NCBI GenBank assembly: GCA_020438865.1
Contig: JAGQTU010000016.1
Coordinates: 29,054 to 61,949 of the forward strand
Direction of reading: 5' to 3'
From: Mycobacterium sp.
GTDB lineage: Bacteria; Actinomycetota; Actinomycetes; Mycobacteriales; Mycobacteriaceae
Length of the DNA: 32,896 nucleotides
The notes under the pieces are model-generated. The model saw nothing but the letters and a program-made list of their open reading frames with translations. It was not told where the DNA came from and ran no database searches. Both the position numbers and the translations under genes were made by a program. Shown in pieces: positions 8,214 through 24,668 of this stretch (the first letter of the stretch is position 1; every line of letters starts with the position of its first letter).

Positions 8214-8999
8214 CTAACGGCTGTCCCGCCACCGGATCAGCGTCTCGGCCTGGCTCAGGTCGTAGCGGGGCCCGTCGCATCCGACGGTCATCAGCGTCAC
8301 GCCCAGCTGCGCCAGCGCCTCGGCGTTGGCGGTCAGGCTCTCGGCGTCACTGCCCTGCACCCCGGACGAGCGTTCGACGGTGGCCGGATCGCGGCCGATG
8401 GTCTCGCAGTGACGCTGCAGCGCCTCGGCTTTACCGGGGTAGGTGTTGGCGTCGGTGAAGCTGTGCCACATGTCGCCGTGCTCGGCGACCAGCCGCAGCG
8501 TCTTTCGTTCGCCCTGACCGCCGATGAGGATCGGGATGTCGCGGGTCGGGGCCGGGTTGAGCTTGGCGAACCGGGACTTGATCCGCGGCAGCGCCTGCGC
8601 GAGGTCGTCGAGCCGGCTGCCGACGGTGCCGAATTCGTAGCCGTACTCGTCGTAGTCCTTCTGCTTCCAGCCCGAGCCGATGCCCAGGATCAGCCGTCCG
8701 GCCGAGATGTGGTCCACGGTGCGGGCCATATCGGCCAGCAGTTCCGGATTGCGGTAGGAGTTGCACGTCACCAGCGCGCCGATCTGTACTCGTGAGGTCT
8801 GCTCGGCCCAGGCACCCAGCATCGTCCAGCATTCGTAATGCGCGCCGTCCGGGTCCCCGTACAGCGGGAAGAAGTGGTCCCAGTTGAAGACGACGTCCAC
8901 CCCGATGTCCTCGCAGCGGCGCACCGCGTCCCGGATCTGGTTGTAGTCGGTGGAATGCTGCGGCTGAAGCTGGACTCCGATGCGGATGGGGAAGGGCAT
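8214..8999 (-). CDS. LLM-class F420-dependent oxidoreductase
   Basis: Encodes 261 residues with a bacterial luciferase-like TIM-barrel pattern. Recognisable segments are IRIGVQLQPQHSTDYNQIRDAVRRCEDIGVDVVFNWDHFFPLYG near the start, RVQIGALVTCNSYRNPELLADMARTVDHISAGRLILGIGSGWKQKDYDEYGY in the middle, and PILIGGQGERKTLRLVAEHGDMWH. The last two are typical of mycobacterial F420-dependent LLM proteins, the family of Rv0044c, which I recall at the equivalent place near leuS in M. tuberculosis. These enzymes use reduced coenzyme F420 in redox reactions; the substrate here is unknown. The start is supported by a -10 box (TACGCT, 9006-9011) 6 bases upstream. The gene diverges from the ESX locus and is the last gene with the conserved leuS-side order. 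Confidence 0.9.
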   Translation of the reverse strand: MPFPIRIGVQLQPQHSTDYNQIRDAVRRCEDIGVDVVFNWDHFFPLYGDPDGAHYECWTMLGAWAEQTSRVQIGALVTCNSYRNPELLADMARTVDHISAGRLILGIGSGWKQKDYDEYGYEFGTVGSRLDDLAQALPRIKSRFAKLNPAPTRDIPILIGGQGERKTLRLVAEHGDMWHSFTDANTYPGKAEALQRHCETIGRDPATVERSSGVQGSDAESLTANAEALAQLGVTLMTVGCDGPRYDLSQAETLIRWRDSR

Positions 9000-9005
9000 G
9001 GCTTC

Positions 9006-9011
9006 AGCGTA
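9006..9011 (-). promoter_or_regulatory. -10 box of a leaderless transcript (F420-type oxidoreductase)
   Basis: Minus strand TACGCT is followed by 6 bases and the ATG at 8999. It is the same hexamer and spacing as for the P450 gene at 6926-6931. Confidence 0.55.
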
Positions 9012-9138
9012 GGCGGGCGGAGTCCTGGGCGGCATGCCCTGTGCCCGACTTCGAGCGACTCCTGCGCCCGCCGGATGCCGGTTACCGACGGCGCGAGCGG
9101 GATCGAAATTGGTTTGCTGGACTTGCGAAAAAGGTGAG

Positions 9139-9168
9139 TCGACAACTTGCTGGAGCAACCCCTAGGAT
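9139..9168 (+). promoter_or_regulatory. Sigma-A-like promoter of the ESX locus
   Basis: A -35-like TCGACA (9139-9144, 5 of 6 to TTGACA) and a -10-like TAGGAT (9163-9168) are separated by 18 bases. Transcription would begin about 40 bases before the PE start. The direct repeat TTGCTGGA (9115-9122 and 9147-9154) and the dyad TTGCT-GG-AGCAA (9147-9158) inside the spacer could be a regulator site. This suggests that the operon starts at PE. Confidence 0.5.
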
Positions 9169-9214
9169 CAGGTGATACCGCAGACGGGGCTGCGATGACC
9201 ACTGGGAGGGGCAA

Positions 9215-9514
9215 ATGGTATTGAATGTCAGCGCGGCCGCGGTGGGCACGTCGGCGGCGACGGAGAGCGGAATCAGCGCGGGGATGGCTGCTGCAACCGC
9301 GGCGGCCGCCGAGCCGCTGACCGGCGTGATGCCGATGGGTGCGGACCTCGATTCAATCGAGTTCGCCGCGGCACTCAACGCCGCGGGCGCGGCCTACCTC
9401 GGTAGCGCATCGGAGCACCTGGGGAACCGGGGTATGTTCGCCGGCGCCCAGAACTTGGCGGCGGCGACCTACACCGCGACCGACGTCATCAGCAATACCG
9501 CACTCGGCCTGTAG
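9215..9514 (+). CDS. PE36: PE-family protein of an ESX-2-type locus
   Basis: Encodes 99 residues, a PE domain alone with no C-terminal extension. It is Ala-rich and helical and has the type VII export motif YxxxD as YTATD (Tyr86 to Asp90) after the second helix. The literal Pro-Glu near the N-terminus typical of PE proteins is not present. It is expected to pair with the PPE protein encoded 14 bases downstream and be exported as a heterodimer through the ESX apparatus. The name follows its position at the head of the ESX-2 order, where M. tuberculosis has PE36; orthology is inferred. A strong ribosome binding site (GGGAGGGG) precedes the ATG. Confidence 0.82.
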   Translation: MVLNVSAAAVGTSAATESGISAGMAAATAAAAEPLTGVMPMGADLDSIEFAAALNAAGAAYLGSASEHLGNRGMFAGAQNLAAATYTATDVISNTALGL

Positions 9515-9528
9515 GGCGGGTGTCCGCT

Positions 9529-10755
9529 ATGCCGGATCCCGCATGGCCGTCGTGCACACCTGAGACCAACTATCTGCGGCTGGTCGGGCCGGGTGCCGCC
9601 GGTACCGCCACCACGATTGCCAATGGTGTCGCCTGGCAGGCGCTGATGGGAAGCCATGAGCTGGCCTTTTCACTGTCCACCCTCAACACCGCGGTCACGA
9701 CCCTGAGCTTCGAGGGCGTCGGGGGCCTGGGTTCGGCGACCGCAGTGACCGCGCTCAACTCGGCGCTGCAACTGCTGGCCGGCTGGGTTCAGGAGAAGCC
9801 GCCCATCGCTGCGAGCGCCGTGTCCGCGTACGAGACCGCGGTGTCAGCGATGATCCCGGCCGAGGTATCGATCGCGAACCGAACCGAACAGGCCTCCGAC
9901 GTGGCGATCAACCCAGCGGTGCTGGGGGCGCTGACGCCGGCCATAGTTGCGCTGGACACCGAGTATTTCGGTGAGCATTGGCCGCACAATGCCGCCGCTG
10001 GCGCGTCCTACGGCGCGGCGCTGGCCGCGCTGGTTGCCGCACTCGCCGTTCCACCCCCGCTGTCTCCGGACGGTGCGTCACCGGCCGCCGCGTCGAGCGC
10101 CGCCGCGGCCATTGCGCAGACCGCCGGCAGCACCGCGGCGGGCAAGGCAATGAAGGCGTCCGGCCAGGCCACAAACATGGCGGGCCGGAACGCCACCGCG
10201 CCAACCGGCGAGGCAGCTCAGGTCGGATCGATGATGACGCAACCCATGGACGCGGCCATGGGTGCGACGCAGCCGGCGATGGGCATGTTCCAGACCCCGA
10301 TGCAGGCGTTTCAAGGGCTGTCCGGTCTTCCCCAGTCGATGATGGGCTCCTTCGGTGGGATGTTCGGCGGAATGAAGGCCGGGGAGGTTGCGGTCCCGCC
10401 GGCCGATCTCGTCAAGGCGAACGCGTCCGGCTCAAGCGCGTTCGGCGGCGCCTCCGGGGGCGGCGGCGGTGCGGCCGGCGGCGGCTTTCCGGGCGCCGGT
10501 CTGACGAGCTACACCCGTCCCACGAGTGGCTTCGCACCAGAAACCGCGGGCCGTCCCGCCGCGTTCAGGCCCGGATCTCTCAGCGGGGCCGAACTGCAGG
10601 GCCCGACCAGCACGCAAGGCGGTGCCGCAGTGCCGGTCGCACCGGCCGGCGCAGGCATGCTCGGGCACGGCAAGGACGAGAGCAGCAAACGCGAAGTAGC
10701 CCATGCCCGCATCGCTCTGAGCGAAGAGTTCCGGTCGGGGGGCCGACTCAGCTAA
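9529..10755 (+). CDS. PPE69: PPE-family protein of an ESX-2-type locus
   Basis: Encodes 408 residues. The first 170 or so form a PPE domain: TPETNYLRLVGPG near the start, then a helical bundle with IANRTEQASDVAINPAVLGALTPAIVALDTEYFGEHW, matching the conserved NR...N...LG...PAI...EYxxxW pattern. The remainder is Ala/Gly/Met-rich with repeated QPMDAAMGATQPAMG and MGSFGGMFGGM segments and a Gly-rich stretch. The start MPDPAW agrees with what I remember of PPE69 of M. tuberculosis; a GTG nine bases upstream (9520) is the alternative. It should pair with the PE protein and be bound by EspG before export. The Pro-Pro-Glu motif itself is reduced to TPE. Confidence 0.85.
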   Translation: MPDPAWPSCTPETNYLRLVGPGAAGTATTIANGVAWQALMGSHELAFSLSTLNTAVTTLSFEGVGGLGSATAVTALNSALQLLAGWVQEKPPIAASAVSAYETAVSAMIPAEVSIANRTEQASDVAINPAVLGALTPAIVALDTEYFGEHWPHNAAAGASYGAALAALVAALAVPPPLSPDGASPAAASSAAAAIAQTAGSTAAGKAMKASGQATNMAGRNATAPTGEAAQVGSMMTQPMDAAMGATQPAMGMFQTPMQAFQGLSGLPQSMMGSFGGMFGGMKAGEVAVPPADLVKANASGSSAFGGASGGGGGAAGGGFPGAGLTSYTRPTSGFAPETAGRPAAFRPGSLSGAELQGPTSTQGGAAVPVAPAGAGMLGHGKDESSKREVAHARIALSEEFRSGGRLS

Positions 10756-10892
10756 TGATCTCTCCAAGAGGGGGTGTGCCCGGCGAGGTTTGCCGGAGGT
10801 GAAGTGACAGCTGCCGGGCAGCCGTCGATACTCGGTTCGCATATCTCCCCGACGTGGGGATTTGAACAACAACAACGAGAAGGGGAGGACAT

Positions 10893-11198
10893 ATGACGCT
10901 CGTCGTTACGCCGGAGGTGCTGCGCACCACGCAGCAGGCCATCGAATCGGCGCTCGAGCACGCCACCGCCATCGCCAACGGCTACCTGAGCAGCCATGAA
11001 GGCCTCGGCTCGGCGGTATGGGGCGGCCAGGCTCAGCTAGCGTCCGTCAACACCGCGGCGCAGATCAACCACGACTTACAGCAGACCATTGCGGGCGGCA
11101 CCCGCCTGGCGCACGGCCTCAGCCAGGCGGCGTCCACGATGGAGCAGCACGAAGCGGACTCCGCGCACAGCCTGACCAGCTTCGCCGCGAACGCCTGA
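10893..11198 (+). CDS. esxD: WXG100-family protein EsxD
   Basis: Encodes 101 residues, the usual size for WXG100 proteins. Two helices flank the turn motif WGG (Trp43-Gly45). The C-terminal helix holds HEADSAHSL. The protein should form a heterodimer with the next gene product and be secreted or act in the ESX apparatus. Its position after PPE and before esxC is that of EsxD in ESX-2. A strong ribosome binding site (AGGGGAGGA) lies a few bases before the ATG. The 137 bases before the gene hold a short hairpin (TCCCC/GGGGA, 10846-10860) and could carry a second promoter, but no convincing one was seen. Confidence 0.85.
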   Translation: MTLVVTPEVLRTTQQAIESALEHATAIANGYLSSHEGLGSAVWGGQAQLASVNTAAQINHDLQQTIAGGTRLAHGLSQAASTMEQHEADSAHSLTSFAANA

Positions 11199-11226
11199 CC
11201 CACAACGACTTCGAAAGGACATTCGT

Positions 11227-11514
11227 ATGTCAGACCACATCACCTACAACCATGGCGGGGTCGCCGACTTCGCCTCCGACGTCGGCGCGCGTTCGGCGCA
11301 GCTGATGGAGATCCACGACGACATCCTGCAGCGCACCAACGCGATCGCGGACTTCTTCCAAGGCACCGCGGCGGCGTCATTCCACGAGGCACAGGTGCAG
11401 ATGTTGCAGGGCCTGCGGGGACTCATCGAGACGATGAACCAGCACGGGCGGACCATCAGCAGCGTCAACGACAGCGCGCACCAGACCGACGTGATGATGG
11501 GAAATCTCTTCTAG
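11227..11514 (+). CDS. esxC: WXG100-family protein EsxC
   Basis: Encodes 95 residues, the same length that I recall for EsxC of M. tuberculosis, and begins MSDHITYNHGGVADFASDVG, very like that protein. The turn motif is FQG (Phe44-Gly46) where most family members have WxG; I recall a Phe there in EsxC as well, so this is a subfamily trait and not damage. It is the likely partner of EsxD, 28 bases upstream, with a ribosome binding site GAAAGGA in the gap. The close match to EsxC is one of the best reasons to assign the whole locus to ESX-2. Confidence 0.9.
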   Translation: MSDHITYNHGGVADFASDVGARSAQLMEIHDDILQRTNAIADFFQGTAAASFHEAQVQMLQGLRGLIETMNQHGRTISSVNDSAHQTDVMMGNLF

Positions 11515-11577
11515 CGACGAGGCGTCAGCCGTGGGGGCGTACGACGGTGCGCCCCTGCCGCGCGTACCGGGAAAGCA

Positions 11578-12411
11578 ATGTTGACGACGACGGTTGACGG
11601 ACTGTGGGTGCTCCAGGTGCTGTCCGGCATCGAGGTAGTGGCTCCCGAACTGGGGCTGCGGCCGCACTTGCCGAGCATCGAGACCGCGGAACTCGCACTG
11701 GTCCATCCGGTTTCGGGCGAACTGCGCGATGCCGGCGCGATCACCGCCGGCGACACCGCAGACGAGATCGTCCTCGAGTGGCTCACCGTGCTCTCGCGGC
11801 GAGACATGGCGCTGCTGGTGTATCTTCAGTCACCCGAGCAGTCCATCGCGCCGGCAAGAGTTCTGTTGGCGCGTTTCGCGCATTGGTGGGTGGCTCTGGA
11901 GCGAAACGGCGAGCTGGTCCGGGTCAGCGGTATCGGGACGGCGACCACCGAAGGCGCGGCCAGCATGCTGATCAACTCCCAGGTCCAACGGCTCTGTGGG
12001 CCGCTCAGGCCGGCGGCGCTGCGGCCGACGACCATCGATGTCGCCGAACTGATTGCGGGCGTGAAAGACTCGTCCGGCCTGCGGACGTACCTGCTCGACC
12101 GCGGGTTCGACACCGAGCGGATCAACGCGCTGACCGCCGCTGCCGATGGAAACCGGTCAGCCCAGGCCTCAGTGGTTGCGATCCAGTCCGGCGTGACGGG
12201 ATCGCCGAACCGGTCGCACATCGAATCCGGAGCCGTCACGATCATCGACACCCCGGTAGGACGACTGGTGACTGAACGCGTCGCCCGCGCAGGTAAGTCC
12301 TGGATGATCGTCAGCCCGGGCTCACCGGGCAACATCAGCTCGGCCGTGCGAAACATGCTGCGCCGCCTGCCCGCCGAGCATGACTGGTACTCCCACAGAA
12401 AGGTGGTCTAA
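11578..12411 (+). CDS. espG2: EspG-type PE/PPE chaperone
   Basis: Encodes 277 residues, within the EspG range. It starts TTTVDGLWVLQVLSGIEVVAPELGLRPHLPS, where the V-x-G-L-W-V-L and PELGLRP pattern is typical of the EspG N-terminus. EspG is a cytoplasmic chaperone that binds the hh motif of the PPE partner and keeps the PE-PPE dimer soluble until it reaches the ESX membrane complex. Its clients are probably the PE and PPE encoded at the head of this locus. It lies 63 bases after esxC and directly abuts the next gene (TAA then GTG, no gap). No membrane segment is visible. Confidence 0.87.
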   Translation: MLTTTVDGLWVLQVLSGIEVVAPELGLRPHLPSIETAELALVHPVSGELRDAGAITAGDTADEIVLEWLTVLSRRDMALLVYLQSPEQSIAPARVLLARFAHWWVALERNGELVRVSGIGTATTEGAASMLINSQVQRLCGPLRPAALRPTTIDVAELIAGVKDSSGLRTYLLDRGFDTERINALTAAADGNRSAQASVVAIQSGVTGSPNRSHIESGAVTIIDTPVGRLVTERVARAGKSWMIVSPGSPGNISSAVRNMLRRLPAEHDWYSHRKVV

Positions 12412-13443
12412 GTGACCAGTCCCTGGAGCGATCCGGCGCACTCCATCGACACACAGGAATCCCCGCACGGCGGCAACTTCAGTCCTGGCTACCGGCACCA
12501 GCAGGGCTCGGTATCGGGCACGCTGCGAATCTCCGACATGGTGGCACCGCGAAAGACTCCGCCGGGCTCCGGCTGGCGCAGGTTCGTCTACAACACCTCG
12601 TTCAAGACGATCAATCTTGGTGAGTCGCCTGCCGAGCGGCACTACCGGGAACTACGCGAACGGATACGAAGGCATATCCGCAAGCAGTACGTGATCGGGT
12701 TTGTATCGGGAAAGGGCGGCGTCGGAAAGACCACGATGACCGCCGGTGTGGGCGCGGTGTTCCGGGAGTGCCGCCCCGAGAACGTCGTGGCCGTCGATGC
12801 CGCCCCCGGGTTCGGCACTCTGGCCGGCCGAATCGACGAGTCACCGCCCGGCGACTACGCGGCTGTGTTGAATGACAATGACGTTCAAGGCTATGCCGAC
12901 ATCCGGGAGCACCTCGGCCAGAACGCGATCGGGTTGGATGTTCTTTCCGGTAATCGCGTCTCGGATCAGCCGAGGCCGTTAGCGCCCACGATGTTCACCG
13001 GTGTCCTGGCGCGGCTGCGAAGGACACACAACGTGATCGTCGTCGACACCGCCGACGACATGGAGCATCCGGTCATGAAGGCAGTTTTCGACGCCTGTGA
13101 CACGCTCGTCTTCGTGTCGGGCCTGACAGCCGATACGTCGCTGCCGGTGACTCGCGGGATCGATCTGCTCCGCTCGATGGGTTACCACGACCTGGTGTCC
13201 CGGAGCATGGTGATCCTCAACAACAGCCGGAACAGCGACGACTCCGATGCCCGCGCGTATCTGACCGAGCGTTTCAGTCGGTCCGGCGCCACCGTGGAGT
13301 TCATGCCTTACGATCCGCATCTGGCCAAGGGCGGCATCATCGACGTCCAGCACGAAATGAACAAGAACACCCGACTTCGGCTCTTCGAGATCACGGCGGC
13401 CCTTGCGGACAAGTACACCCCGGACGCCGACAGGCCGCGCTGA
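12412..13443 (+). CDS. MinD/ParA-like ATPase of the ESX-2 locus (Rv3888c-like)
   Basis: Encodes 343 residues. After an N-terminal extension of about 90 residues, a deviant Walker A motif GKGGVGKTT sits at about residues 100-108, followed by VVAVDAAPGFGTLAGR and VIVVDTADD (switch regions). This is the MinD/ParA/SRP-like P-loop class, related to EspI of ESX-1. In M. tuberculosis ESX-2 the gene between espG2 and eccD2 is Rv3888c, which I recall as this type. A role in assembly, localisation or regulation of secretion is plausible but unproven. The GTG start directly follows the espG stop, and the end overlaps eccD by one base (TGATG), so the genes are translationally linked. Confidence 0.85.
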   Translation: MTSPWSDPAHSIDTQESPHGGNFSPGYRHQQGSVSGTLRISDMVAPRKTPPGSGWRRFVYNTSFKTINLGESPAERHYRELRERIRRHIRKQYVIGFVSGKGGVGKTTMTAGVGAVFRECRPENVVAVDAAPGFGTLAGRIDESPPGDYAAVLNDNDVQGYADIREHLGQNAIGLDVLSGNRVSDQPRPLAPTMFTGVLARLRRTHNVIVVDTADDMEHPVMKAVFDACDTLVFVSGLTADTSLPVTRGIDLLRSMGYHDLVSRSMVILNNSRNSDDSDARAYLTERFSRSGATVEFMPYDPHLAKGGIIDVQHEMNKNTRLRLFEITAALADKYTPDADRPR

Positions 13444-14924
13444 TGGCGAAGGTGGCCTTCCCCGCTCGCTGCGCAGTCGCGGTCGTATGCGGAGGACACC
13501 TGGTATCGCAGGTCTATCCGGCTTCGGTACCGGTCGAGGTCTTCATCGACAATGTCGTCGAACTTCTGAACGAAGAGTTGAAACGCCGAGGTGTGGCCGG
13601 CCTCGATCCGGCAAGGGCTTACGAGTTGAACCGAGCCAACGGCACTCGCCTCGACGTCACCAAGACACTGGATGAACTTGGAGTGGAGGATGGCGCCACC
13701 CTGGTGCTGATTCCTGCGCAGGAAGGAGAATCCTTTGAGCCGCAATACGAGTCGCTGTCCACCGGACTTGCCCGAGTCGGTAGTCGACTTTTCGCGCCGG
13801 TGACGGCCGAGTTCGCCGCGACCACCGCGCTGGCGATCCTTGCGATGACGGTGACTGCGGTCGTCGGGCTGGCAGTACTTACGCGCGTCCATACGGAAGG
13901 GTCGACCCCTGGCCTCGTCACCGGATTGCTAGGGATGCAACTGGCAGCCGGAGCCGGTTGCGTCTGGCGGTGGTGGCCCGGTCGGCGTGACTTGCTGAGC
14001 GGATTGGGTTGGCTGACGGTGCCATTGCTGTCGGTCAGCACCGCGGCGGTGGCCCCTGGGGGAATTGGCGCACCGCATCTGTTCATCGCCGCACTCACGG
14101 CAGCGGTGCTGACGTGTGGCATCGCCTCGATCACGCAACGGCATGTGACCGGGGCGGCCACGGTGGTGACACTCTGCGCGGTCGCGGGGATAGTCACGGC
14201 GGCGCGGATGTGGCGCCCCGTTCCAGCGCAGTGGTTGGGTATGTGCACACTCGTCGGTCTGCTCTTGCTGCTCGGCATGGCCCCGACGATCACACTGTGG
14301 GTGGCCCGAATCCGGCCGCCGCACTTCGGCTCGATCACCGGCCGGGACCTATTCCGGCGCAGCGACGGCTCGCCCGTCGACACCGTCTCTCCGGTTGACG
14401 ATGACGGTGACGACGAGCCGAACAGGGACACCACCCCGCGCGGCGCCACGATCACCGCTGCGGCCAGGAGAGCCAACGGAGTCCTCACCGGGATCTGCGT
14501 CGCCGCGGCGCTCACGCTCCCCGCCGCGGTGTGGGCCATATTGATGCCGGGCAGCCCGCACTCCAGCGCCGCCGCGGTCCTGGCGGGACTTTTCGCGTTC
14601 ATCTTCATCAGCCGCGGCCGGGCGTTCGCGGATCGCAGGCAGGCGGCCGCCCTCGTGCTGGGGGCGGCCGCTGCGGTGTGTGTCGGGGTGGTTCGCTACG
14701 TCGTTTCCACAGAGCCGTATTCAGGGATGGCGTTGCTCTGGGGCGCAGTCGTTCTGGTCGCTTTCGCGGGACTCGGGTTGGCAGCAGCACTGCTGGTGCC
14801 GGTCACCCGGTTCACGCCGCTGATCCGGATGGTCGCCGAGTGGCTGGAACTGGTCGCGATTGTCGCCGCCTTGCCGCTCGCTGCCGGGATCGGTGGACTG
14901 TTCACCTGGGTTCGAATGCGATGA
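13443..14924 (+). CDS. eccD2: ESX membrane component EccD
   Basis: Encodes 493 residues. The first 95 or so form the cytosolic ubiquitin-like domain (PVEVFIDNVVELLNEELKRRG, LDELGVEDGATLVLIP). The rest is a chain of hydrophobic segments, roughly ten or eleven, with a charged cytoplasmic loop near residues 290-340 (RDLFRRSDGSPVDTVSPVDDDGDDEPNRD). EccD is the main membrane subunit of the ESX inner-membrane complex and dimerises around EccB, EccC and EccE. It is the expected neighbour of the MinD-like ATPase and mycP in ESX-2. Both ends overlap the neighbouring genes by stop/start codons. Confidence 0.9.
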   Translation: MAKVAFPARCAVAVVCGGHLVSQVYPASVPVEVFIDNVVELLNEELKRRGVAGLDPARAYELNRANGTRLDVTKTLDELGVEDGATLVLIPAQEGESFEPQYESLSTGLARVGSRLFAPVTAEFAATTALAILAMTVTAVVGLAVLTRVHTEGSTPGLVTGLLGMQLAAGAGCVWRWWPGRRDLLSGLGWLTVPLLSVSTAAVAPGGIGAPHLFIAALTAAVLTCGIASITQRHVTGAATVVTLCAVAGIVTAARMWRPVPAQWLGMCTLVGLLLLLGMAPTITLWVARIRPPHFGSITGRDLFRRSDGSPVDTVSPVDDDGDDEPNRDTTPRGATITAAARRANGVLTGICVAAALTLPAAVWAILMPGSPHSSAAAVLAGLFAFIFISRGRAFADRRQAAALVLGAAAAVCVGVVRYVVSTEPYSGMALLWGAVVLVAFAGLGLAAALLVPVTRFTPLIRMVAEWLELVAIVAALPLAAGIGGLFTWVRMR

Positions 14925-16582
14925 GACGCTTCGGTGCAAGCCGGGGAGCGGCGCTCGCGGGTGTCGTGCTGCTGTTTGCCGCGGTGGCAACTGCACCTGA
15001 GGCCCAGGGCATTTCGCCGCCCACCGTTGACCCGTCCCGGGTGCCCCCGGACGGCCAGCCCCGCTCGGACCAACCGATGCGGCAGAGCAACATCTGCGCC
15101 CGCACGATCACCGTCGCCGAGCCGAGTGTCGCTCTGCCGGCACCGGGGTTCGCCATGCTCAACATCGCGAGTGCCTGGCAATACTCGACCGGCAACGGAG
15201 TGTCGGTTGCTGTGATCGACACCGGGGTCAACCCCAGCCCGCGACTGCCTGTCGTCGCGGGGGGTGACTACATCATGGGTGGCGACGGCTTGATGGACTG
15301 CGACTCGCACGGGACGATCGTGGCCTCGCTCATCGGTGCTGCGCCGCAGGGCAGTCCGCTGCCCGCGCCAATGCCGGCCAAGCCTGCCTTTCCGCCCGGG
15401 GCGGGCGCCCCAGCGGTGATCTCCGCACCGCCGCCACCCGGCGCATCGCCGCCGCCACCGGAGCCTCCGCCACCGCCCTCGCCGGTCACGGTGACCGAAA
15501 CCAAACAACTGCCGCCGCCGCCGCCGGAGCCTCCGCCGCCGCCACCGCCACCGGACCAACCCTCAAACGCCCCGGGCGATCCCGACCCGAGCGGCCCCGA
15601 GCACCCCGAGGTGCCTCCGCCCGCCCCCGGGACGCCGGATGGGATCGTCGGGGTCGCACCACACGCCACGGTGATATCGATCCGGCAATCATCCCGTGCC
15701 TACGAACCCGAGAATCCGGCGCCCGGTGACGGCGAGGCGCGTCGCAAGGCCGGCACCGTTGCGACCCTCGCCAGCGCGATCGTCCATGCCGCCAATATGG
15801 GCGCCAAGGTGATCAACATCAGTGTGACAGCGTGCGTTTCGGCCGCCGACCCGCTCGACCAGCGCGCCATCGGCGCGGCGGTCTGGTATGCGGCAACGGT
15901 CAAGGATGCCGTGGTCGTCGCGGCGGCCGGCAACGAAGGGGAGGACGGCTGTGCGCAGAACCCGGCATTCGATCCCCTCGATACCACCGATCCGCGGGAC
16001 TGGCACCAGGTGAAGACGGTGTCGTCACCGTCCTGGTTCTCCGACTACGTGTTGTCCGTAGGTGCCGTTGACAACAGCGGGGCGCCGATCAGCAAGAGTC
16101 TCGCCGGCCCGTGGGTGGCGGCCGCCGCGCCGGGGGTTGGCATCATGGGTCTCTCTCCCCAGACCGGCGGCCCTGTGAACGCCTATCCGCCGGTTCGCCC
16201 GGGCGAGAAGAACATGCCCTTCTGGGGCACCAGCTTCTCGGCGGCATATGTCAGTGGTGTGGCGGCGTTGGTGCGCGCCAAGTATCCGCACCTCTCCGCG
16301 CACCAAGTGATTCACCGTCTTCTCCAGACTGCACACAATCCGCCGCGTGGGGTCGACAACCAGGTCGGCTACGGGGTGGTGGATCCGGTTGCCGCGTTGA
16401 CCTTCAGCGTGCCCCCTGGTGACCGGCTGGCTCCCGGTGCGCTGACGCGCGTGCTCGTCCCGCCGTCGGCCCCGCCGCCGCCCGATCACCGGGCGCGCAA
16501 CATGGCACTGGCTTTCGCCGGCACAGTCCTCGGCGCCCTGTTGCTGGTCGGGATCATCGCGAGAGCGAGGCGGGCGCGATGA
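14921..16582 (+). CDS. mycP2: Mycosin, membrane-anchored subtilisin-like protease (MycP)
   Basis: Encodes 553 residues. Residues 1-30 are a signal peptide and about 527-548 a C-terminal membrane anchor followed by ARARRAR. The subtilase residues are all present: Asp100 (VIDTG), His130 (DSHGT), oxyanion Asn338 (AAGNEG) and Ser438 (GTSFSAAYVSG). Between His130 and the rest of the domain lies a Pro-rich insertion (about 141-240) with long Pro runs; I recall MycP2 and MycP5 as having such long loops. Mycosins sit on the periplasmic face, stabilise the ESX complex and process some substrates. ATGA overlaps join the gene to eccD and eccE. The start ATG 14921 gives a proper signal peptide; the longer open frame upstream is antisense-like shadow within eccD. 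Confidence 0.92.
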   Translation: MRRFGASRGAALAGVVLLFAAVATAPEAQGISPPTVDPSRVPPDGQPRSDQPMRQSNICARTITVAEPSVALPAPGFAMLNIASAWQYSTGNGVSVAVIDTGVNPSPRLPVVAGGDYIMGGDGLMDCDSHGTIVASLIGAAPQGSPLPAPMPAKPAFPPGAGAPAVISAPPPPGASPPPPEPPPPPSPVTVTETKQLPPPPPEPPPPPPPPDQPSNAPGDPDPSGPEHPEVPPPAPGTPDGIVGVAPHATVISIRQSSRAYEPENPAPGDGEARRKAGTVATLASAIVHAANMGAKVINISVTACVSAADPLDQRAIGAAVWYAATVKDAVVVAAAGNEGEDGCAQNPAFDPLDTTDPRDWHQVKTVSSPSWFSDYVLSVGAVDNSGAPISKSLAGPWVAAAAPGVGIMGLSPQTGGPVNAYPPVRPGEKNMPFWGTSFSAAYVSGVAALVRAKYPHLSAHQVIHRLLQTAHNPPRGVDNQVGYGVVDPVAALTFSVPPGDRLAPGALTRVLVPPSAPPPPDHRARNMALAFAGTVLGALLLVGIIARARRAR

Positions 16583-18117
16583 GCTTCATGACCCGGGTCG
16601 CAATAGTCATCGGGGTGTTGGCCATCGGTCTGGTCGGTTTGAGCGCCGGCGGCTATACCACCGCCGTTGTCGGACTCGTCGTGGGAGCGGCGCTCCTCGC
16701 CGTTCCGTGGCGGAGCCGACCGATGTGGTCATGGGCGGCGCTCTACGCCCGCCGCAACCGCCCGATCGTGTCGGCAGAGCCGGTCACGGTCGCCAACGAC
16801 CGGTCCGGTGGCGGCGTCCGTTACCAGGACGGCGTCGCTGCCGTGGCGATACAGCTGCTCGGGAAGCCATATTCACCAACGTTTTTCACCGGATCGACTT
16901 CCACTCAGACACGTAACACCATCGATGTCAGAGACCTTCTTGCCGACATGCACCAAAGCCTCGGGGTCACCTTGGAGTCGTTGACCGTGATCAGTGCCGG
17001 CGCAAGACGGCGAAGTAGTGGCGACTATCCGCGGGTATACGACACGCTGATCGGAACCCCGCCGTACGCCGGCCAACGCGAGACCTGGCTGGTGATCAGG
17101 TTGCACGCGCTGGACAACGCGGATGCGCTGCAGTGGCGAGTAAGCGTCGGAACCATGGCATTGGCCGCCGCCCAACGGATCGCAGCGGGGTTGCGGTGCA
17201 GGGACGTCCGCGCGCGGGTAGCGACGGCGCCCGACATCGTGGAACTCGAGCGGCGGATGGGTCGGGCAGCGCTGGAATCGCACAATCAACGTTGGCGCAC
17301 CGTCCGCGGAGACGGGGGCTGGCTCACCACCTACGCCTACCGGCCTCGCGATGTGACGACCGAACTGCTCGGCCAGGCCTGGTCCTTGCGTGCGGACGGT
17401 GTCATCCAGAACGTCACTGTTTTCCCCGATGGCGAGGCCACCGCGACGCTCACGGTGCGAACTCCTCAGCCGCCGAACACCCCGCCCAGTGTCATGCTCC
17501 GGCCCCTTCCCGGCGAGCAGGCAAGTGCCGTCGCAGCCGGGATGTGCGGGGCACGGCCGCACCTACGGGGTGTTCCACGCGGAGCATTAGGACCCCACTT
17601 GGTGATACCGGTCGGTCCCTCCGGGATCCTGCTGGGCAAGTTGCCCACCGGTGAGCGGTTGTTGCTTCCGCTGGCCGACCCCGGCGAGTTCAGCCGGGTC
17701 CACATCGCAGCCGAGGACTCGATCGCCAAGCGGATCATCGTCCGTGCGGCGGGCGCAGGTGATCGGATCACGGTTCACTCCAGCGAGCTTCGACGTTGGA
17801 CGAGTGTGCGAATGCCGCAAATCGCCGTGACCGATCAGGCCCGTCCCGCTTCGGCGACCACGATCAGTGTGGTCGACGGCACCGTTAATCCGGCACCCCG
17901 ACCCAACACGGTGGTATCGGTCGGTCCACCGGGTGTCACGCGACGCGGCCCGGCCGATGTCCTCATTGTCCAAACCGGACCCGCGACTGTCGAGGTCACC
18001 ATTGCGACCGACGTCTACCAGGTCGAGGTCGAACTGTTCCGCGCCGAGAACCGCTACGTGTCAATCGAACCGATGGATCTCGGGCCGGCGGCACCTGAAC
18101 CGGCGAGCCAACGATGA
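16579..18117 (+). CDS. eccE2: ESX membrane component EccE
   Basis: Encodes 512 residues. Two hydrophobic helices lie at the N-terminus (about 6-24 and 28-44: VAIVIGVLAIGLVGLSAG and AVVGLVVGAALLAVPW). The remainder is a soluble domain with the EccE-type segment VAAVAIQLLGKPYSPTFFTG and a C-terminal region starting near HLVIPVGPSGILLGKL. EccE lies on the outside of the ESX membrane complex in the species where the structure is known. It overlaps mycP at the ATGA 16579-16582 and eccA at 18114-18117. Identification rests on position, size and topology more than on a sequence motif. Confidence 0.85.
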   Translation: MSFMTRVAIVIGVLAIGLVGLSAGGYTTAVVGLVVGAALLAVPWRSRPMWSWAALYARRNRPIVSAEPVTVANDRSGGGVRYQDGVAAVAIQLLGKPYSPTFFTGSTSTQTRNTIDVRDLLADMHQSLGVTLESLTVISAGARRRSSGDYPRVYDTLIGTPPYAGQRETWLVIRLHALDNADALQWRVSVGTMALAAAQRIAAGLRCRDVRARVATAPDIVELERRMGRAALESHNQRWRTVRGDGGWLTTYAYRPRDVTTELLGQAWSLRADGVIQNVTVFPDGEATATLTVRTPQPPNTPPSVMLRPLPGEQASAVAAGMCGARPHLRGVPRGALGPHLVIPVGPSGILLGKLPTGERLLLPLADPGEFSRVHIAAEDSIAKRIIVRAAGAGDRITVHSSELRRWTSVRMPQIAVTDQARPASATTISVVDGTVNPAPRPNTVVSVGPPGVTRRGPADVLIVQTGPATVEVTIATDVYQVEVELFRAENRYVSIEPMDLGPAAPEPASQR

Positions 18118-19967
18118 CAAACAGCAACGGGACCGCTGTGGCACGCCGCCAGTTCGATCAGGCGATGGCGGTGCTCGACGTGGACAATGACGCGGCGCAC
18201 CGGCACTTTCGAGGGGCCACCGACGCGGACCCGTCGATGGCGGATGCCTGGCTGGGCCGAATCGCGGTTGGCGACGACGCGCTGGCGACATTGCAGGAGC
18301 TCTACGCCTACGGCAGCCGTATTCACCGCGAGTCCAACCGGTTGGGAGTCGGCTTGGCCGCCGTCGCCAAAGCCGGACCGTATCTGTCCATCACAGTTAC
18401 CGAGGCGTCCCATGCGGGTCTCGCGCTGGCCAGCGCGCTCATCGACGGCAAGCAGTTCGAGAAAGCCGAAGCAGTACTGGCTGATTCGGCATTGCTGGAC
18501 AGCTGGGAGAACCATCAGTGGCAGCAGTACGTCCGGGCTTACCTGATGTTCGCGACCCAGAGGTGGCCGGATGTCATCGCCGAGGCCGCCCGAATCCTCC
18601 CGGCGCAGGCAATCATCATGTCGGCCGTCACCGCGGCCACCAACGCGCTGGCCGCGCACGCGGCAGCACATCTTGGCCAGGGGCGGGTCGCGCTCGACTG
18701 GGCCGAGCGGGTCGAGTTGAGCTCAGAGCGCGACTCGTTGACCGAGGGCCCCCGGCGCAGCATCCCTGATAGTGCGGTGACTGCCATCGATCCAGCCCAG
18801 TTCCCGCTCATCGCGGCCGATCTCGCCTACATCCGCGGGATGGCTCACCGGCAGCTCGGCGACGAACAGAGCGCACAGATCTGGTTGTCCAAGGCGACCA
18901 TCAACGGCGCGCTCATCGACCCGGCCAAGCAGGCCCTGGCCGATCCCAGGCTCCAGTTGGTCATCACCGATGAAGACGCCATCAACAGCCGCACCAACAA
19001 GTGGGATGTCTCCACGGAACAGTCGGAGCAGGAGAGATCCGAGGAGGAGAACGCGGAGCGGCGCGCGGAACTTCTGGCGGCCGGCCGTGCGTTGCTGGCC
19101 AATCAGGTGGGACTGATCGAGGTCAAGCAGGCCGTCGCAGAGTTGGAGGATCAGATCGAGGTTCGCGCGCTGCGGCTCGCACACGGACTGCCGGTGGCGA
19201 ATCAGACGAACCACATGTTGCTCGTGGGCCCACCGGGTACCGGCAAGACGACCACGGCCGAGGCGCTGGGCAAGATCTACGCGGGGTTCGGCATCGTCCG
19301 GCATCCGGAGATCATCGAGGTCAAGCGCTCCGACTTCTGTGGTGAGCATATCGGGTCGTCGGGCCCGAAGACCAATGAACTCATCGAGAGATCTCTCGGC
19401 CGAATCCTTTTCGTGGATGAGATGTATTCGCTCGTCGAACGCCACCACGACGGCCGACCGGACATGATCGGGATGGAAGCTGTCAATCAGCTCATGGTTG
19501 CGCTCGAAGTCCACCGGTTCGACTTCTGCTTCATCGGCGCCGGGTACGAGAGGGAGATCGACCAATTCCTCACGGTGAACCCGGGATTGGCGGGCCGGTT
19601 CAACCGCAGATTGCGGTTCGCGTCGTACAGCCCCGACGAACTCGCAGAGATCGCCGTTCGCTACGGAGCGCCGCGGGCAACGGTGATCGAACCGGCCGCC
19701 CGTGAGGCGCTCAGCGCGCTTTGTCGCAAGCTGCGCGGGTACCTGGGGCCGGACGGCGCCCACGGCATCGACACGATGCAGAACGGTCGGTTCGCCCGCA
19801 ACGTGGTCGAACGTGCGGAGCGGCTTCGTGATTCGCGCGTCGCGGCGCAGCACCGCACCAGCCGGGGGTCGGTCACGGTCGAGGACCTCGAAACCCTGCG
19901 CACCCAGGATGTGGTGGCCGCGGTCGTCGACGCCTGCGCGGAGAAGCACGTGCCACTCGAGCTGTGA
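18114..19967 (+). CDS. eccA2: ESX cytosolic AAA+ ATPase EccA
   Basis: Encodes 617 residues, close to the M. tuberculosis EccA2 length. The N-terminal half (about 1-300) is helical and TPR-like, suited to substrate or EspG binding. The C-terminal half is a CbxX/CfxQ AAA+ module with Walker A GPPGTGKT (372-379), Walker B ILFVDE (Asp435, Glu436), and a sensor/arginine-finger region near GLAGRFNRRLRFASYSPDEL. EccA probably releases EspG or other chaperones from PE-PPE substrates. The ATGA overlap with eccE makes it the last gene of the operon. A hairpin follows 6 bases after the stop codon and the next gene is convergent. Confidence 0.93.
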   Translation: MTNSNGTAVARRQFDQAMAVLDVDNDAAHRHFRGATDADPSMADAWLGRIAVGDDALATLQELYAYGSRIHRESNRLGVGLAAVAKAGPYLSITVTEASHAGLALASALIDGKQFEKAEAVLADSALLDSWENHQWQQYVRAYLMFATQRWPDVIAEAARILPAQAIIMSAVTAATNALAAHAAAHLGQGRVALDWAERVELSSERDSLTEGPRRSIPDSAVTAIDPAQFPLIAADLAYIRGMAHRQLGDEQSAQIWLSKATINGALIDPAKQALADPRLQLVITDEDAINSRTNKWDVSTEQSEQERSEEENAERRAELLAAGRALLANQVGLIEVKQAVAELEDQIEVRALRLAHGLPVANQTNHMLLVGPPGTGKTTTAEALGKIYAGFGIVRHPEIIEVKRSDFCGEHIGSSGPKTNELIERSLGRILFVDEMYSLVERHHDGRPDMIGMEAVNQLMVALEVHRFDFCFIGAGYEREIDQFLTVNPGLAGRFNRRLRFASYSPDELAEIAVRYGAPRATVIEPAAREALSALCRKLRGYLGPDGAHGIDTMQNGRFARNVVERAERLRDSRVAAQHRTSRGSVTVEDLETLRTQDVVAAVVDACAEKHVPLEL

Positions 19968-19973
19968 GCAGTC

Positions 19974-20012
19974 GAGTCAGAACTCGCGTACAAGAAGTGC
20001 GAGCTCTGACTC
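19974..20012. terminator. 14-bp hairpin, copy 2 of the inverted dispersed repeat
   Basis: Arms 19974-19987 and 19999-20012 pair at 13 of 14 positions around an 11-base loop, directly between the ends of the convergent eccA and MFS genes. The segment 19974-20003 is the inverted counterpart of 8175-8204 (26 of 30 identical). A bidirectional terminator is the simplest role. Confidence 0.75.
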
Positions 20013-20020
20013 AACGCCAC

Positions 20021-21583
20021 TCAGGCCTCACCCCGCCGCACGAACAGCGCCAGCACCGCACCCGTGGCAGCGGCCACGGCACCGACGACCATCGAGGTCT
20101 GCAGCCCGGCCATGAACGCCTCATGGCTGCCGGTGGCGACCATCGCGTTCAATTGCGGCGGCGCACCAGGAATCGACGGCGCCATACCCTTGGCCACCAG
20201 TTCCTTTGCCGGCGCGAGCTTTTCGGCGACCGGCAGCGGTGTACCCGCGGCGGTCAGCTTGTCGACCAGCGTCGAGCCCACCTTGCTGGACAGCACCGAG
20301 CCCAGGATCGTGGTGCCCAGCACCGCGCCGAGCTGAACCGAGGTGCTCTGCAGCCCGCCGGCCACCCCGGCGTCGTCGACCGGGGCGTTGCCCACGATCG
20401 CATCCGAACTCGCGGTCAGCACCAATCCGATGCCGGCCCCGAGCAGGGTGAACGCCGGCCAGATCGAGCCGTAGCCGGAGTCCGCCTCCAACCCACCCAG
20501 CAGTGCCAGCGCGCCGGCGACACCGAGCAGGCCGAGCACCATCGCCGGGCGCGGACCGAACCGTTCGGTGATCACCCCGGACAGCGGGGCCAGCACCATC
20601 ATCGCCAGGCTGAGCGGCAGTGTGCGCACACCGGTCTCCACCGGGCTCCAGCCCTGCAGGTTCTGCAGGAACAGCGTCATGAAGAACAGCGCGCCGAAGA
20701 GCGCGAAGAAGTTGATGGTGACCACAGCGGTCCCGATCGACAGCGACCGGTTGGCGAACAGCCGCAGCGGCAGCAGCGGGTCGGCCGTGGTGCGCTCGAC
20801 GATGATGAACGCGCCGACCAGCACCGCGCCACCCATCAGGAACGCCACCGTCTGCGGATTCAGCCAGCCCCACTCGGGGGCCTTGATCAATCCGTAGACC
20901 AACAGGAACAAGCTGCCCGACAGCGTCAGGATTCCGGCCACGTCGAGCCGGTGCTCGGCGTCGCTGCGGCTCTCGGTGATAGCGGCCGCGCCGAGGAGCA
21001 CGGCGATCACCGCGATCGGTACGTTGATGTAGAACACCGACTCCCAGTTGAGGTGCTCGACGAGCACGCCGCCCAGGATGGGTCCGGCGGCCACCGAGAC
21101 CCCCGTGGCGGCGCCCCAGATGCCGATCGCGGTGTTGAGCTTGTGTACCGGGAAGACGCCGCGGATGAGCGCCAGCGTGCTGGGCATCAGCAGCGCACCG
21201 AACACGCCCTGCAGGGCCCGCATGGTGATGACACCGCCGACGGTGCCGATCAGGCCGATCGCCACCGACGTGACGGCGAAGCCCACGACGCCGATGAAGA
21301 AGGCCCGCCTGCGGCCGAACATGTCGCCGAGTTTGCCGCCGAAGATCAGCAGGGCGGCCAGGGCCAGCAGGTAGGCGTCGGTGATCCACTGCAGGTCCGA
21401 CAGCGTCGCGTCGAGGTCGATGGCGATCCGCGGGTTGGCGATCGCGACCACCGAGGCGTCCAGGCCGACCATGATCACGCCGACCGACACGGCGGCCAGA
21501 ATCCACCACGGATTGCCCCGGACGCCCGCTCTGGGCGCCGCGTGCCGCGCCCGCCCGGGCGGCTGAACTGTGGAGATTGCCAC
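20021..21583 (-). CDS. MFS drug exporter, DHA2 family (14 TM)
   Basis: Encodes 520 residues, the size of 14-helix DHA2/EmrB-type proton antiporters. Motif D appears as LDASVVAIANPRIAIDL in the first helix, motif A as GGKLGDMFGRRR in the loop between helices 2 and 3, and the motif C region as LGGVLVEHLNWESVFYINVP. It probably expels a toxic or antimicrobial compound. The start is the GTG at 21583, preceded by AAAGGAG with a 7-base spacing; longer frames are rejected. The gene is divergent from a TetR regulator with inverted repeats in the shared 101-base gap, so it is very likely repressed by that TetR and induced by a substrate. Confidence 0.92.
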   Translation of the reverse strand: MAISTVQPPGRARHAAPRAGVRGNPWWILAAVSVGVIMVGLDASVVAIANPRIAIDLDATLSDLQWITDAYLLALAALLIFGGKLGDMFGRRRAFFIGVVGFAVTSVAIGLIGTVGGVITMRALQGVFGALLMPSTLALIRGVFPVHKLNTAIGIWGAATGVSVAAGPILGGVLVEHLNWESVFYINVPIAVIAVLLGAAAITESRSDAEHRLDVAGILTLSGSLFLLVYGLIKAPEWGWLNPQTVAFLMGGAVLVGAFIIVERTTADPLLPLRLFANRSLSIGTAVVTINFFALFGALFFMTLFLQNLQGWSPVETGVRTLPLSLAMMVLAPLSGVITERFGPRPAMVLGLLGVAGALALLGGLEADSGYGSIWPAFTLLGAGIGLVLTASSDAIVGNAPVDDAGVAGGLQSTSVQLGAVLGTTILGSVLSSKVGSTLVDKLTAAGTPLPVAEKLAPAKELVAKGMAPSIPGAPPQLNAMVATGSHEAFMAGLQTSMVVGAVAAATGAVLALFVRRGEA

Positions 21584-21602
21584 GATGTGGCTCCTTTCAG
21601 GT

Positions 21603-21678
21603 AAGTGGAGGAGCTCCACCACTTCTTCCAGGAACCGTACCGATAAGCGGTGGTGTTCCTCCACTTCTGGGGTAATCT
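21603..21678. promoter_or_regulatory. Operator/promoter region between the MFS and TetR genes
   Basis: AAGTGGAGGA (21603-21612) and TCCTCCACTT (21657-21666) are exact inverted repeats. A second dyad GTGGAG-GAG-CTCCAC (21605-21619) overlaps the first arm. The -10 box TAATCT (21673-21678) ends 6 bases before the GTG at 21685. TetR dimers bound at both arms would cover both promoters. Confidence 0.6.
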
Positions 21679-21684
21679 GAGGTG

Positions 21685-22371
21685 GTGATTCCTCCCGCAC
21701 AATGGGGTGCAGAGCGATCCAGGCCACTTCGCGCCGACGCCGAACGCAACCGGGAACGTATCGTCACCGCTGCCAGCCGACTGTTTGCTGAACAAGGGCT
21801 GTCGGTACCCCTCGAGGATGTCGCCCGCACCGCGGGCGTCGGCGTCGCCACCCTCTACCGCCGCTTTCCCACCCGCACCGACCTGGCCATCGCGGCCTTC
21901 GAACGCAACATGTCCTCCTACATCGACACCGTGGAGAAGGCGCTGGCCAATCCGCTGCCGTGGGACGGGTTCCGCGACCTGGTCTATGACCTGTGCGCGC
22001 TGCAGGCCTCCGACCCGGGCCTGCGCGCGCTGCTCACCACCGCGTTCCCGGCCAGTTCGGTCATCGAGCAGCGGGCCGCCGAGACAGTCGACAAGGTCGG
22101 CGAGGTGATCGCCCGCGCCCAGCAGGCCGGGGCGCTGCGCCCGGATGTCGGCGTCGGCGACGTGGTAGTGCTCCTGCTGGCCAACGCCGGTGTCCTGGAG
22201 GCCACCCGCGAGCACGCGCCGCAGGCCTGGCGCCGCTTCGCCGCGCTGATGGTCGACGCCATGCGCGCAGGGACGCACGAACCGCTGCCCCCACCCACCC
22301 CCGCGGAGGAGTTGCGCAGCTCGATCGCCATGCTGACGGGCGACACCCTGCGCATTCCGGCCGGGGACTGA
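21685..22371 (+). CDS. TetR-family repressor of the MFS exporter
   Basis: Encodes 228 residues. The helix-turn-helix lies at about residues 20-66: ERNRERIVTAASRLFAEQGLSVPLEDVARTAGVGVATLYRRFPTRTDLAIAAFE, a textbook TetR N-terminus. The C-terminal part is the ligand-binding helical domain. GTG 21682 and GTG 21685 are both possible; I prefer 21685 because the -10 box TAATCT lies exactly 6 bases before it, as for several leaderless genes here. It is divergent from the MFS exporter and should repress it and itself. Confidence 0.92.
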   Translation: MIPPAQWGAERSRPLRADAERNRERIVTAASRLFAEQGLSVPLEDVARTAGVGVATLYRRFPTRTDLAIAAFERNMSSYIDTVEKALANPLPWDGFRDLVYDLCALQASDPGLRALLTTAFPASSVIEQRAAETVDKVGEVIARAQQAGALRPDVGVGDVVVLLLANAGVLEATREHAPQAWRRFAALMVDAMRAGTHEPLPPPTPAEELRSSIAMLTGDTLRIPAGD

Positions 22372-22376
22372 CCGGG

Positions 22377-24598: not shown

Positions 24599-24668
24599 GA
24601 TGGCCCATGTTAGCGGCCGGCGCCGCAGTAGCATCGATCCACGAGCCGAAAGTTGGGATGTACAAACG

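What the first reader, a model, noticed from the sequence alone, without database searches (positions are those of the whole stretch)
9139..19967. ESX-2-type secretion locus without eccB and eccC
The order PE, PPE, esxD, esxC, espG, MinD-like ATPase, eccD, mycP, eccE, eccA is that of ESX-2 in M. tuberculosis, where eccB2 and eccC2 precede PE36. Here the gene before PE is a divergent F420-type oxidoreductase, and no EccB or EccC sequence occurs in the window. EccC is the motor ATPase and EccB a core membrane subunit. Either the two genes are elsewhere in the genome, or the system borrows EccB/EccC from another ESX, or it has lost its original secretion function while retaining intact reading frames for all ten remaining genes.
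Basis: partly seen in the sequence, partly recalled or inferred. Interest (0 to 1): 0.85.

Follow-up and report, generated by a model that had tools for sequence, protein, structure and literature searches.

The report
A secretion gene cluster split in two
The two genes that seemed to be missing from this mycobacterial protein-secretion cluster are intact elsewhere in the same genome, most likely moved there by chromosome inversions around the replication origin, so the machine is probably complete but encoded at two places.

Summary
In detail: the window holds an intact ESX-2-type gene run (PE to eccA, 9215-19967) without eccB or eccC. They are not lost: the same genome has a lone DUF2710-eccB-eccC unit on contig C88, the unit that sits directly upstream of PE in the nearest relatives G098, G024 and G093. 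Both new junctions (LLM|PE, eccC|ligase block) recur in a second MAG. Trees of the two halves share 12 supported clades with 0 conflicts, and the genes comparable between the two MAGs show dN/dS of 0.06-0.29. The flanks of the halves are exchanged between the two chromosome arms beside oriC with outward orientation kept, as origin-spanning inversions would give; one internal block of C88 does not fit simply. Of 118 genomes of the genus, 57 have an ESX-2-type EccD and all 57 an ESX-2-type EccB: 24 adjacent, 13 split on one contig and divergent, 20 on different contigs. Split ESX-2 is already in print for the M. avium complex, M. paragordonae, M. decipiens and M. riyadhense. What I did not find in print is the explanation (recurrent origin-spanning inversion, at least three splits by parsimony) and this lineage.

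The parts
8214..9158 (-). F420/LLM-class oxidoreductase, new left neighbour of the locus. In G009 and G098 it lies about 35 kb from rpmH/oriC and about 270 kb from ESX-2. The HMM match starts at residue 58, so the true start may be near 8987
9159..9214 (.). left junction (LLM | PE); the same junction occurs in MAG HKST-UBA43 (L023)
   Evidence: L023 matches C77:33066-44529 in one piece, 92.2% nt
9215..9514 (+). PE gene (PE36 position)
9520..10755 (+). PPE gene (PPE69 position)
10893..11198 (+). WXG100 protein, esxD position
11227..11514 (+). WXG100 protein, esxC position
11578..12411 (+). EspG chaperone (espG2)
   Evidence: PF14011
12412..13443 (+). MinD/EspI-like ATPase
13443..14924 (+). EccD2 membrane subunit
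   Evidence: TIGR03920
14921..16582 (+). mycosin MycP2; D-, H- and GTSFSAA motifs present
16579..18117 (+). EccE2 membrane subunit
18114..19967 (+). EccA2 AAA+ ATPase
19968..22376 (.). right junction zone: MFS transporter (20021-21727, -) and TetR regulator (21682-22371, +) between eccA and the next conserved block
22377..32848 (.). block W (Mce-type gene, GDSL lipase and others). On the dnaA arm in relatives (102-116 kb from coordinate 1 in G009; 3.892-3.902 Mb in G098), directly after the block now found at C88:23.9-45.5k

Best explanation
This is one half of a complete but bipartite ESX-2-type type VII secretion locus. Shown: the genome's own eccB2 and eccC2, preceded by a DUF2710 gene, lie on contig C88:15567-21473, and in the closest relatives this unit is directly upstream of PE. 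Inferred: EccB2 and the EccC2 motor made from C88 assemble in the membrane with EccD2, EccE2 and MycP2 made from the window. The window half also supplies the substrates (PE/PPE, two WXG100 proteins), the EspG chaperone, the EccA ATPase and the MinD-like ATPase. Inferred from synteny: the split arose through inversions that span the replication origin. These exchange the distal parts of the two chromosome arms, keep the exchanged genes reading away from oriC, and here cut between eccC and PE. Three such exchanges, together with the absence of two stretches that lie in between in relatives, account for the five new junctions seen.
For: Location: EccB/EccC on C88 without an EccD or EccE on that contig. 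Identity: C88 eccB/eccC are 80-87% identical to the genes directly upstream of PE in L024-L027 and 74-82% in L028. The third ATPase domain of C88 EccC (1097-1356) scores 231 bits against PDB 6jd5, named EccC2, versus 118 for the matching single-domain EccC5 entry 6j18. Synteny: in G098 and G024 the order is C88[10.8-21.5k] - C77[38.3-49.0k] - C88[45.6k...]. LLM lies far away on the rpmH arm, and W lies on the dnaA arm beside C88[23.9-45.5k]. C77 begins at rpmH, i.e. at oriC. Replication: MAG HKST-UBA43 has both junctions, LLM|PE (L023) and eccC|AMP-ligase (L223). Co-inheritance: 57 of 57 genomes with ESX-2-type EccD also have ESX-2-type EccB. Trees of EccB+EccC and of EccD+MycP+EccE+EccA+MinD share 12 supported clades (of 14 and 15) with 0 conflicts. 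Selection between the two genomes that share the split: dN/dS eccC 0.14, eccB 0.29, eccD 0.21, minD 0.22, WXG100 genes 0.06 and 0.10. Catalytic motifs are kept. Inversion pattern elsewhere: 13 of 13 same-contig splits are divergent; origin genes lie between the halves in the three genomes checked, G031, G116 and G046.
Against: C77 and C88 are not physically linked in this 366-contig, 90.9% complete assembly, so distance and orientation between the halves in this genome are unknown. No origin-gene motif was found on C88; its arm is inferred from gene content. The inversion series is a parsimony reconstruction: the 180-270 kb between LLM and ESX-2 in relatives and about 20 kb of the dnaA arm are not accounted for. 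An internal block of C88 (30.0-35.4 kb) lies on the rpmH arm in G009, G098 and G024 and reads towards the origin there, which arm exchange alone does not give. Other rearrangements, including transposition, could give the same junctions. The 13 divergent splits are not independent (about two events). Full-length EccC5 structures score higher overall against C88 EccC (613 bits) than the single-domain EccC2 entry, because no full-length EccC2 is in the PDB. No expression or secretion data exist. eccE and eccA were not on the sister MAG contig fetched, and mycP only for its first 154 residues, so post-split selection was not tested on these.
Confidence: 0.85

Rival explanations
1. The window locus has lost its partners and works with EccB/EccC borrowed from another ESX, for example the ESX-5-type cluster on C302.
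For: A complete ESX-5-type cluster with its own eccB and eccC is present.
Against: The cognate eccB2/eccC2 are present, intact and under purifying selection, and the EccB half is there in 57 of 57 genomes with the EccD half.
Confidence: 0.04
2. The locus is a non-functional relic after the split.
For: A near relative, G004, has lost most of the locus (DUF2710, eccB, 355 aa of eccC and 182 aa of eccA matched). Some split genomes show shortened frames at the best match: G031 eccC and mycP, G100 eccC, G045 mycP. 58 of 118 genomes had no EccB match of 60% identity or more, so the system is dispensable for the genus.
Against: All frames in the window and C88 eccB/eccC are open. dN/dS is 0.06-0.29 across the ten ESX-2 genes compared (mycP in part) between two genomes that share the split. 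Catalytic motifs are kept.
Confidence: 0.06
3. Assembly or binning artefact: C77 or C88 is chimeric or from a contaminant.
For: Fragmented assembly, 366 contigs, 4.2% contamination.
Against: Both junctions recur in MAG HKST-UBA43, which differs by 4-8% at the DNA level. A contaminant with the canonical locus would carry PE-eccA after eccC, and C88 does not.
Confidence: 0.03
4. eccB2/eccC2 were lost and regained by lateral transfer, as proposed for M. paragordonae (PMC6616192).
For: Published proposal for another species (passages seen).
Against: Trees of the two halves have no conflicting supported clades. The C88 flank upstream of eccB (10.8-15.5k) is that of the canonical locus in G098 and G024.
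Confidence: 0.04

Closest known systems
ESX-2 of M. tuberculosis (Rv3884c-Rv3895c)
   Same: Same gene content. The third ATPase domain of the C88 EccC matches the solved EccC2 domain (6jd5, 231 bits) better than the solved EccC5 domain (6j18, 118 bits). Rv range as printed in PMC6616192; the detailed order is recalled.
   Different: Here eccB2/eccC2 are on another contig with different neighbours. EccD is 50-56% identical to the group with M. gastri and M. bohemicum, so this is a divergent ESX-2 subtype.
Split ESX-2 of M. decipiens and M. riyadhense (PMC11237670) and of M. paragordonae (PMC6616192)
   Same: ESX-2 genes in two distant regions; for M. decipiens and M. riyadhense low similarity to M. 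tuberculosis ESX-2 is also reported.
   Different: In M. paragordonae pe36 is listed in the same region as eccC2 and eccB2. Genomes with that pattern examined here (G031, G110, G047 and five more) are cut between PPE and esxD; the present locus is cut between eccC and PE. The M. decipiens and M. riyadhense breakpoints were not seen.
M. avium complex 'transposition of EccB2 and EccC2' (Newton-Foot 2016, PMC4791881)
   Same: Probably the same cut, between eccC and PE: loci of M. colombiense and M. arosiense keep PE and show no EccB/EccC in the 5.6 kb upstream, and G036, G046 and G100 of the same EccD group are cut there. That these species belong to the complex is recalled.
   Different: A separate event: in the ESX-2 trees the present genome is sister to adjacent-type genomes, far from that group.

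Membership tests
ESX-2 type VII secretion locus | EccB, EccC, EccD, EccE, MycP core all encoded | tested here: met
   window plus C88
ESX-2 type VII secretion locus | EccC closest to named EccC2 | tested here: met
   third ATPase domain only: 6jd5 EccC2 231 bits vs 6j18 EccC5 118 bits; no full-length EccC2 in the PDB to compare
ESX-2 type VII secretion locus | one PE, one PPE, two WXG100, espG, MinD/EspI-like, eccD, mycP, eccE, eccA in this order | tested here: met
ESX-2 type VII secretion locus | single contiguous gene cluster with eccB-eccC before PE | tested here: not met
   eccB/eccC on C88. Contiguity is not required for the name in print: split ESX-2 loci are described
ESX-2 type VII secretion locus | secretes its PE/PPE and Esx substrates | not testable with these tools
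   needs a secretome experiment
Locus split by origin-spanning inversion | halves divergent with oriC between them | tested here: inconclusive
   Not resolved in the window genome (two contigs). Elsewhere divergent in 13 of 13 same-contig splits (four of them across the record start, contigs taken as circular); origin-gene motifs between the halves in 3 of 3 checked, G031, G116, G046
Locus split by origin-spanning inversion | flanks exchanged between the two arms, outward orientation kept | tested here: met
   blocks on both sides of the five junctions mapped in G009 and G098; the exception is an internal block, C88:30.0-35.4k, which reads inward on the rpmH arm in relatives

The most novel reading that the evidence does not exclude
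ESX-2 is a machine with two genetic modules that origin-spanning inversions have separated at least three times, at only two places (eccC|PE and PPE|esxD). Both modules were retained under selection each time, because the membrane motor unit and the substrate/channel unit are independent transcription units that tolerate, or even profit from, being placed on opposite arms near oriC.
Probability: 0.25. Interest if true: 0.55.

Novelty: new member of a known kind. Interest (0 to 1): 0.4.

Why it matters
A search by gene cluster would call this system incomplete, although its motor and core subunit are present and conserved. The repeated splits give natural tests of whether ESX-2 needs its genes together, and inversion offers an explanation of published two-part ESX-2 loci that does not need lateral transfer. 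Gene-cluster callers may under-count ESX-2 for the same reason.

Tried and rejected
Considered and rejected: (a) A single origin-centred inversion, which would predict that LLM and the nitroreductase after eccC on C88 are neighbours in relatives. They are not (best nitroreductase match 63-67% identical, about 200 kb from LLM in G009 and about 120 kb in G024). In the sister MAG the eccC match ends 11 bases from the ligase match, so the 2.4-kb stretch with the nitroreductase is probably a later insertion here. (b) That C302 or C309 supplies the partner: C302 is a complete ESX-5-type cluster, and C309 has eccB and eccC on one strand with its own eccD on the other, the order of ESX-4 as recalled. 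(c) A plasmid origin of this EccD: best plasmid match 43.5% identical; 14 records matched, 1 covering at least 80% of the query. (d) A shared repeat at the junctions: the only C77-C88 similarity at E<=1e-3 is 301 bp at 68% between LLM and a gene at C88:53.9k, not at the breakpoints. (e) Mobile elements at the junctions: the 20 proteins scanned gave no transposase family and two ORFs there (384 and 239 aa) had no match; the genes at C88 10.4k, 43.9k and 45.6k were not scanned and no IS search was run, so this is not excluded.

Rows dropped before counts: of the 67 genomes with an EccB match, 7 whose best match was under 60% identical were left out (other ESX types), as were further sub-60% matches in other genomes. 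re-searched only 12 genomes (9 with ESX-2-type EccB but no EccD hit, and 3 with 46-48% EccB) at a looser cut-off and added 6 EccD genomes; the other genomes without an EccD hit were not re-searched. Coordinates were copied by hand. The 20 'different contigs' genomes were not resolved except the window's own. Cut sites were read for 11 of the 13 same-contig splits (not G108, G080). Trees used 22 taxa chosen from those fetched; G116, G036, G017 and G004 were fetched but not used. Some outgroup (ESX-5) rows, eccA above all, may not be true orthologues. Papers: searches. Of the 7 papers (ESX-2 with inversion), passages for both terms were read in PMC11237670, PMC9241763 and PMC10619280; in PMC8025370 only passages on eccC2, eccB2 and ESX-2; the other 3 were seen as listings. 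Passages of PMC8092274 and PMC10619280 did not bear on the split.
Full report
OBSERVATION. The window carries ten open genes in one direction from 9215 to 19967, PE-PPE-WXG100-WXG100-EspG-MinD-like-EccD-MycP-EccE-EccA. The divergent neighbour at 8214-9158 is an F420/LLM oxidoreductase. The window is C77:29054-61949 of a 4.96-Mb, 366-contig assembly, 90.9% complete, and the locus starts 38 kb inside the contig.

WHERE THE MISSING GENES ARE. The own genome has three EccB. FtsK/EccC-type domains lie on the same three contigs, on C317 (taken as the chromosomal FtsK, not typed) and weakly on C66. C302 is a complete cluster with its own EccD and EccE, whose EccC scores 1586 bits against EccC5. C309 has eccB and eccC on one strand and eccD on the other, the order of ESX-4 (ESX-4 order recalled). 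C88 has only DUF2710, eccB and eccC of ESX parts. The C88 pair is 80-87% identical to the genes directly upstream of PE in L024-L027, 82-86% in L031 and 74-82% in L028. Its third ATPase domain scores 231 bits against the solved EccC2 domain (6jd5) and 118 against the solved EccC5 domain (6j18); full-length EccC5 entries score higher over the whole protein (613 bits), and no full-length EccC2 is available to compare. Together with the synteny this makes C88 the place of the missing eccB2/eccC2.

HOW THE SPLIT AROSE. C77 begins at rpmH, followed by genes in the order of the origin region (rpmH and parA motifs), i.e. at the replication origin. In G098 and G024, which have the locus in one piece, the order is C88[10.8-21.5k, to eccC] - C77[38.3-49.0k, PE to eccA] - C88[45.6k onwards]. 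In G009 and G098 the LLM gene is about 35 kb from rpmH on that arm and about 270 kb from ESX-2; in G024 it is about 180 kb from ESX-2. The block to the right of the window locus (W, C77:51.4k onwards) lies on the dnaA arm, at 102-116 kb in G009, directly after the block now at C88:23.9-45.5k. In the window genome the new junctions are LLM|PE, eccA|W, C88 10.8k, eccC|ligase block, and ligase block|C88 45.6k. On both sides of each junction the blocks keep the orientation away from the origin. Exchanges of the distal arms, which is what an origin-spanning inversion does, give this pattern; three are enough for the junctions named if the stretches that lie between LLM and ESX-2 and inside the dnaA arm in relatives were lost, moved or never there. 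This reconstruction is inference. Against it, an internal block of C88 (30.0-35.4k) maps to the rpmH arm in relatives and reads inward there. The junctions LLM|PE and eccC|ligase are also present in MAG HKST-UBA43 (L023 and L223), at 92% and 96% DNA identity; there the 2.4-kb stretch with a nitroreductase seen on C88 is absent. The split is therefore not an assembly error of one genome.

THE SAME THING ELSEWHERE. In 118 genomes of the genus, 51 had an EccD match at E<=1e-100; 6 more were found at a looser cut-off among 12 genomes re-searched. All 57 also have an EccB of ESX-2 type (>=60% identical; 60 genomes in all). The three with EccB alone are G004, whose locus is deleted from within eccC to within eccA, and G003 and G025, listed as 72% and 80% complete. 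Of the 57, 24 have the halves adjacent, 13 have them on one contig but separate (61-72 kb in 9, 156-176 kb in 4, all 13 divergent; four across the record start with the contig taken as circular), and 20 on different contigs. In the three genomes checked, G031, G116 and G046, dnaA and rpmH motifs lie between the halves. Two cut sites were seen: PPE|esxD (G031, G110, G047, G023, G045, G006, G064, G116) and eccC|PE (G036, G046, G100 and the window genome). In the ESX-2 trees the window genome is sister to the adjacent-type G009, G024, G093 and G098 (clade support 100% in both trees). The seven PPE|esxD genomes in the tree form one clade (100% in both). G046 and G100 sit among adjacent-type genomes. 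That means at least three separate splits by parsimony on the gene trees, whose deepest nodes are weakly supported; no species tree was made.

FUNCTION. Trees from the two halves share 12 clades of >=95% support (14 and 15 in all) without a conflicting pair; the distance matrices correlate with r = 0.94 (0 of 2000 permutations reach it; related rows, so not a strict probability). Between the window genome and HKST-UBA43, which share the split, dN/dS is 0.14 for eccC, 0.29 for eccB, 0.21 for eccD, 0.22 for minD, 0.29 for espG, 0.06 and 0.10 for the WXG100 genes, 0.19 for PE, 0.22 for PPE and 0.18 for the first 154 codons of mycP; two neighbour genes give 0.05 and 0.30; eccE and eccA could not be compared. 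EccC keeps its first and third Walker A motifs; the second has the same form as in G024, G098 and G084. MycP keeps its D, H and S motifs and EccA its Walker A and B. The best reading is a complete ESX-2 machine encoded at two places. Assembly of the two products into one membrane complex is inferred from the family, not shown.

WHAT IS KNOWN. Newton-Foot et al. 2016 (PMC4791881; abstract, outline and passages) state that the M. avium complex is distinguished by 'the transposition of EccB2 and EccC2'. The M. paragordonae genome paper (PMC6616192; passages) reports ESX-2 in two distant regions and explains it by lateral transfer. PMC11237670 (passages) reports two-part ESX-2 in M. decipiens, confirmed by PCR, and in M. 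riyadhense, with low similarity to M. tuberculosis ESX-2. PMC9241763 (passages) reports ESX-2 loss in most members of the M. ulcerans/marinum clade. In the searches and the passages read I saw no paper that links the split to inversions around the origin; whole texts were not read, three papers were seen only as listings, and most subscription papers are not held. The finding is thus a further, independent case of a known arrangement, with a mechanism that I did not find stated.

Noticed in passing
genomes G000, G118, G098: These show no EccB match of the strongest group (E about 1e-170 to 1e-178) that G009, G024, G093, G004 and G031 have, presumably ESX-3 (not typed). G098 is a one-contig genome listed as 100% complete with only two EccB. 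Absence of ESX-3 from a mycobacterium would be unusual; G000 and G118 are incomplete.
   Followed up: partly
L201 (G004:C1:5760000-5779999): Near relative with a remnant ESX-2: DUF2710, eccB, a 355-aa match of eccC, then a 182-aa match of eccA; the genes between gave no match.
   Followed up: partly
L048 (M. montefiorense): DUF2710-eccB-eccC directly downstream of eccA, so the halves are adjacent again in the opposite order.
   Followed up: no
L029 and L030 (M. numidiamassiliense): Two copies of the esxD-eccA half with the same match statistics, in opposite orientation about 130-150 kb apart on one contig.
   Followed up: no
L039, L057, L091: PE and PPE kept next to esxD but no eccB/eccC match in the 5.7-5.9 kb upstream: possibly further eccC|PE splits.
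   Followed up: partly
G060, G026, G105, G091, G057, G029, G074; L199, L202, L211: 10.4-12.0 kb between eccB and eccD instead of 7.3-9.1 kb in the other 17 adjacent genomes; in the three read here (G060, G026, G105) the extra DNA lies between eccC and PE, the same place as one split site.
   Followed up: no
L015 13482-15809 (C88:21481-23808): Nitroreductase and a 384-aa ORF without Pfam match right after eccC in this genome, absent at that place in the sister MAG.
   Followed up: partly
G031 eccC and mycP, G100 eccC, G045 mycP: Shortened open frames at the best match in split-type genomes; sequencing error or decay not distinguished. G009, an adjacent-type genome, has a shortened eccE.
   Followed up: no
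L057 (CAMCWJ010000002.1): Contig with a mycobacterial ESX-2 locus in a record titled Bifidobacterium breve MAG: mislabelled or mis-binned.
   Followed up: no
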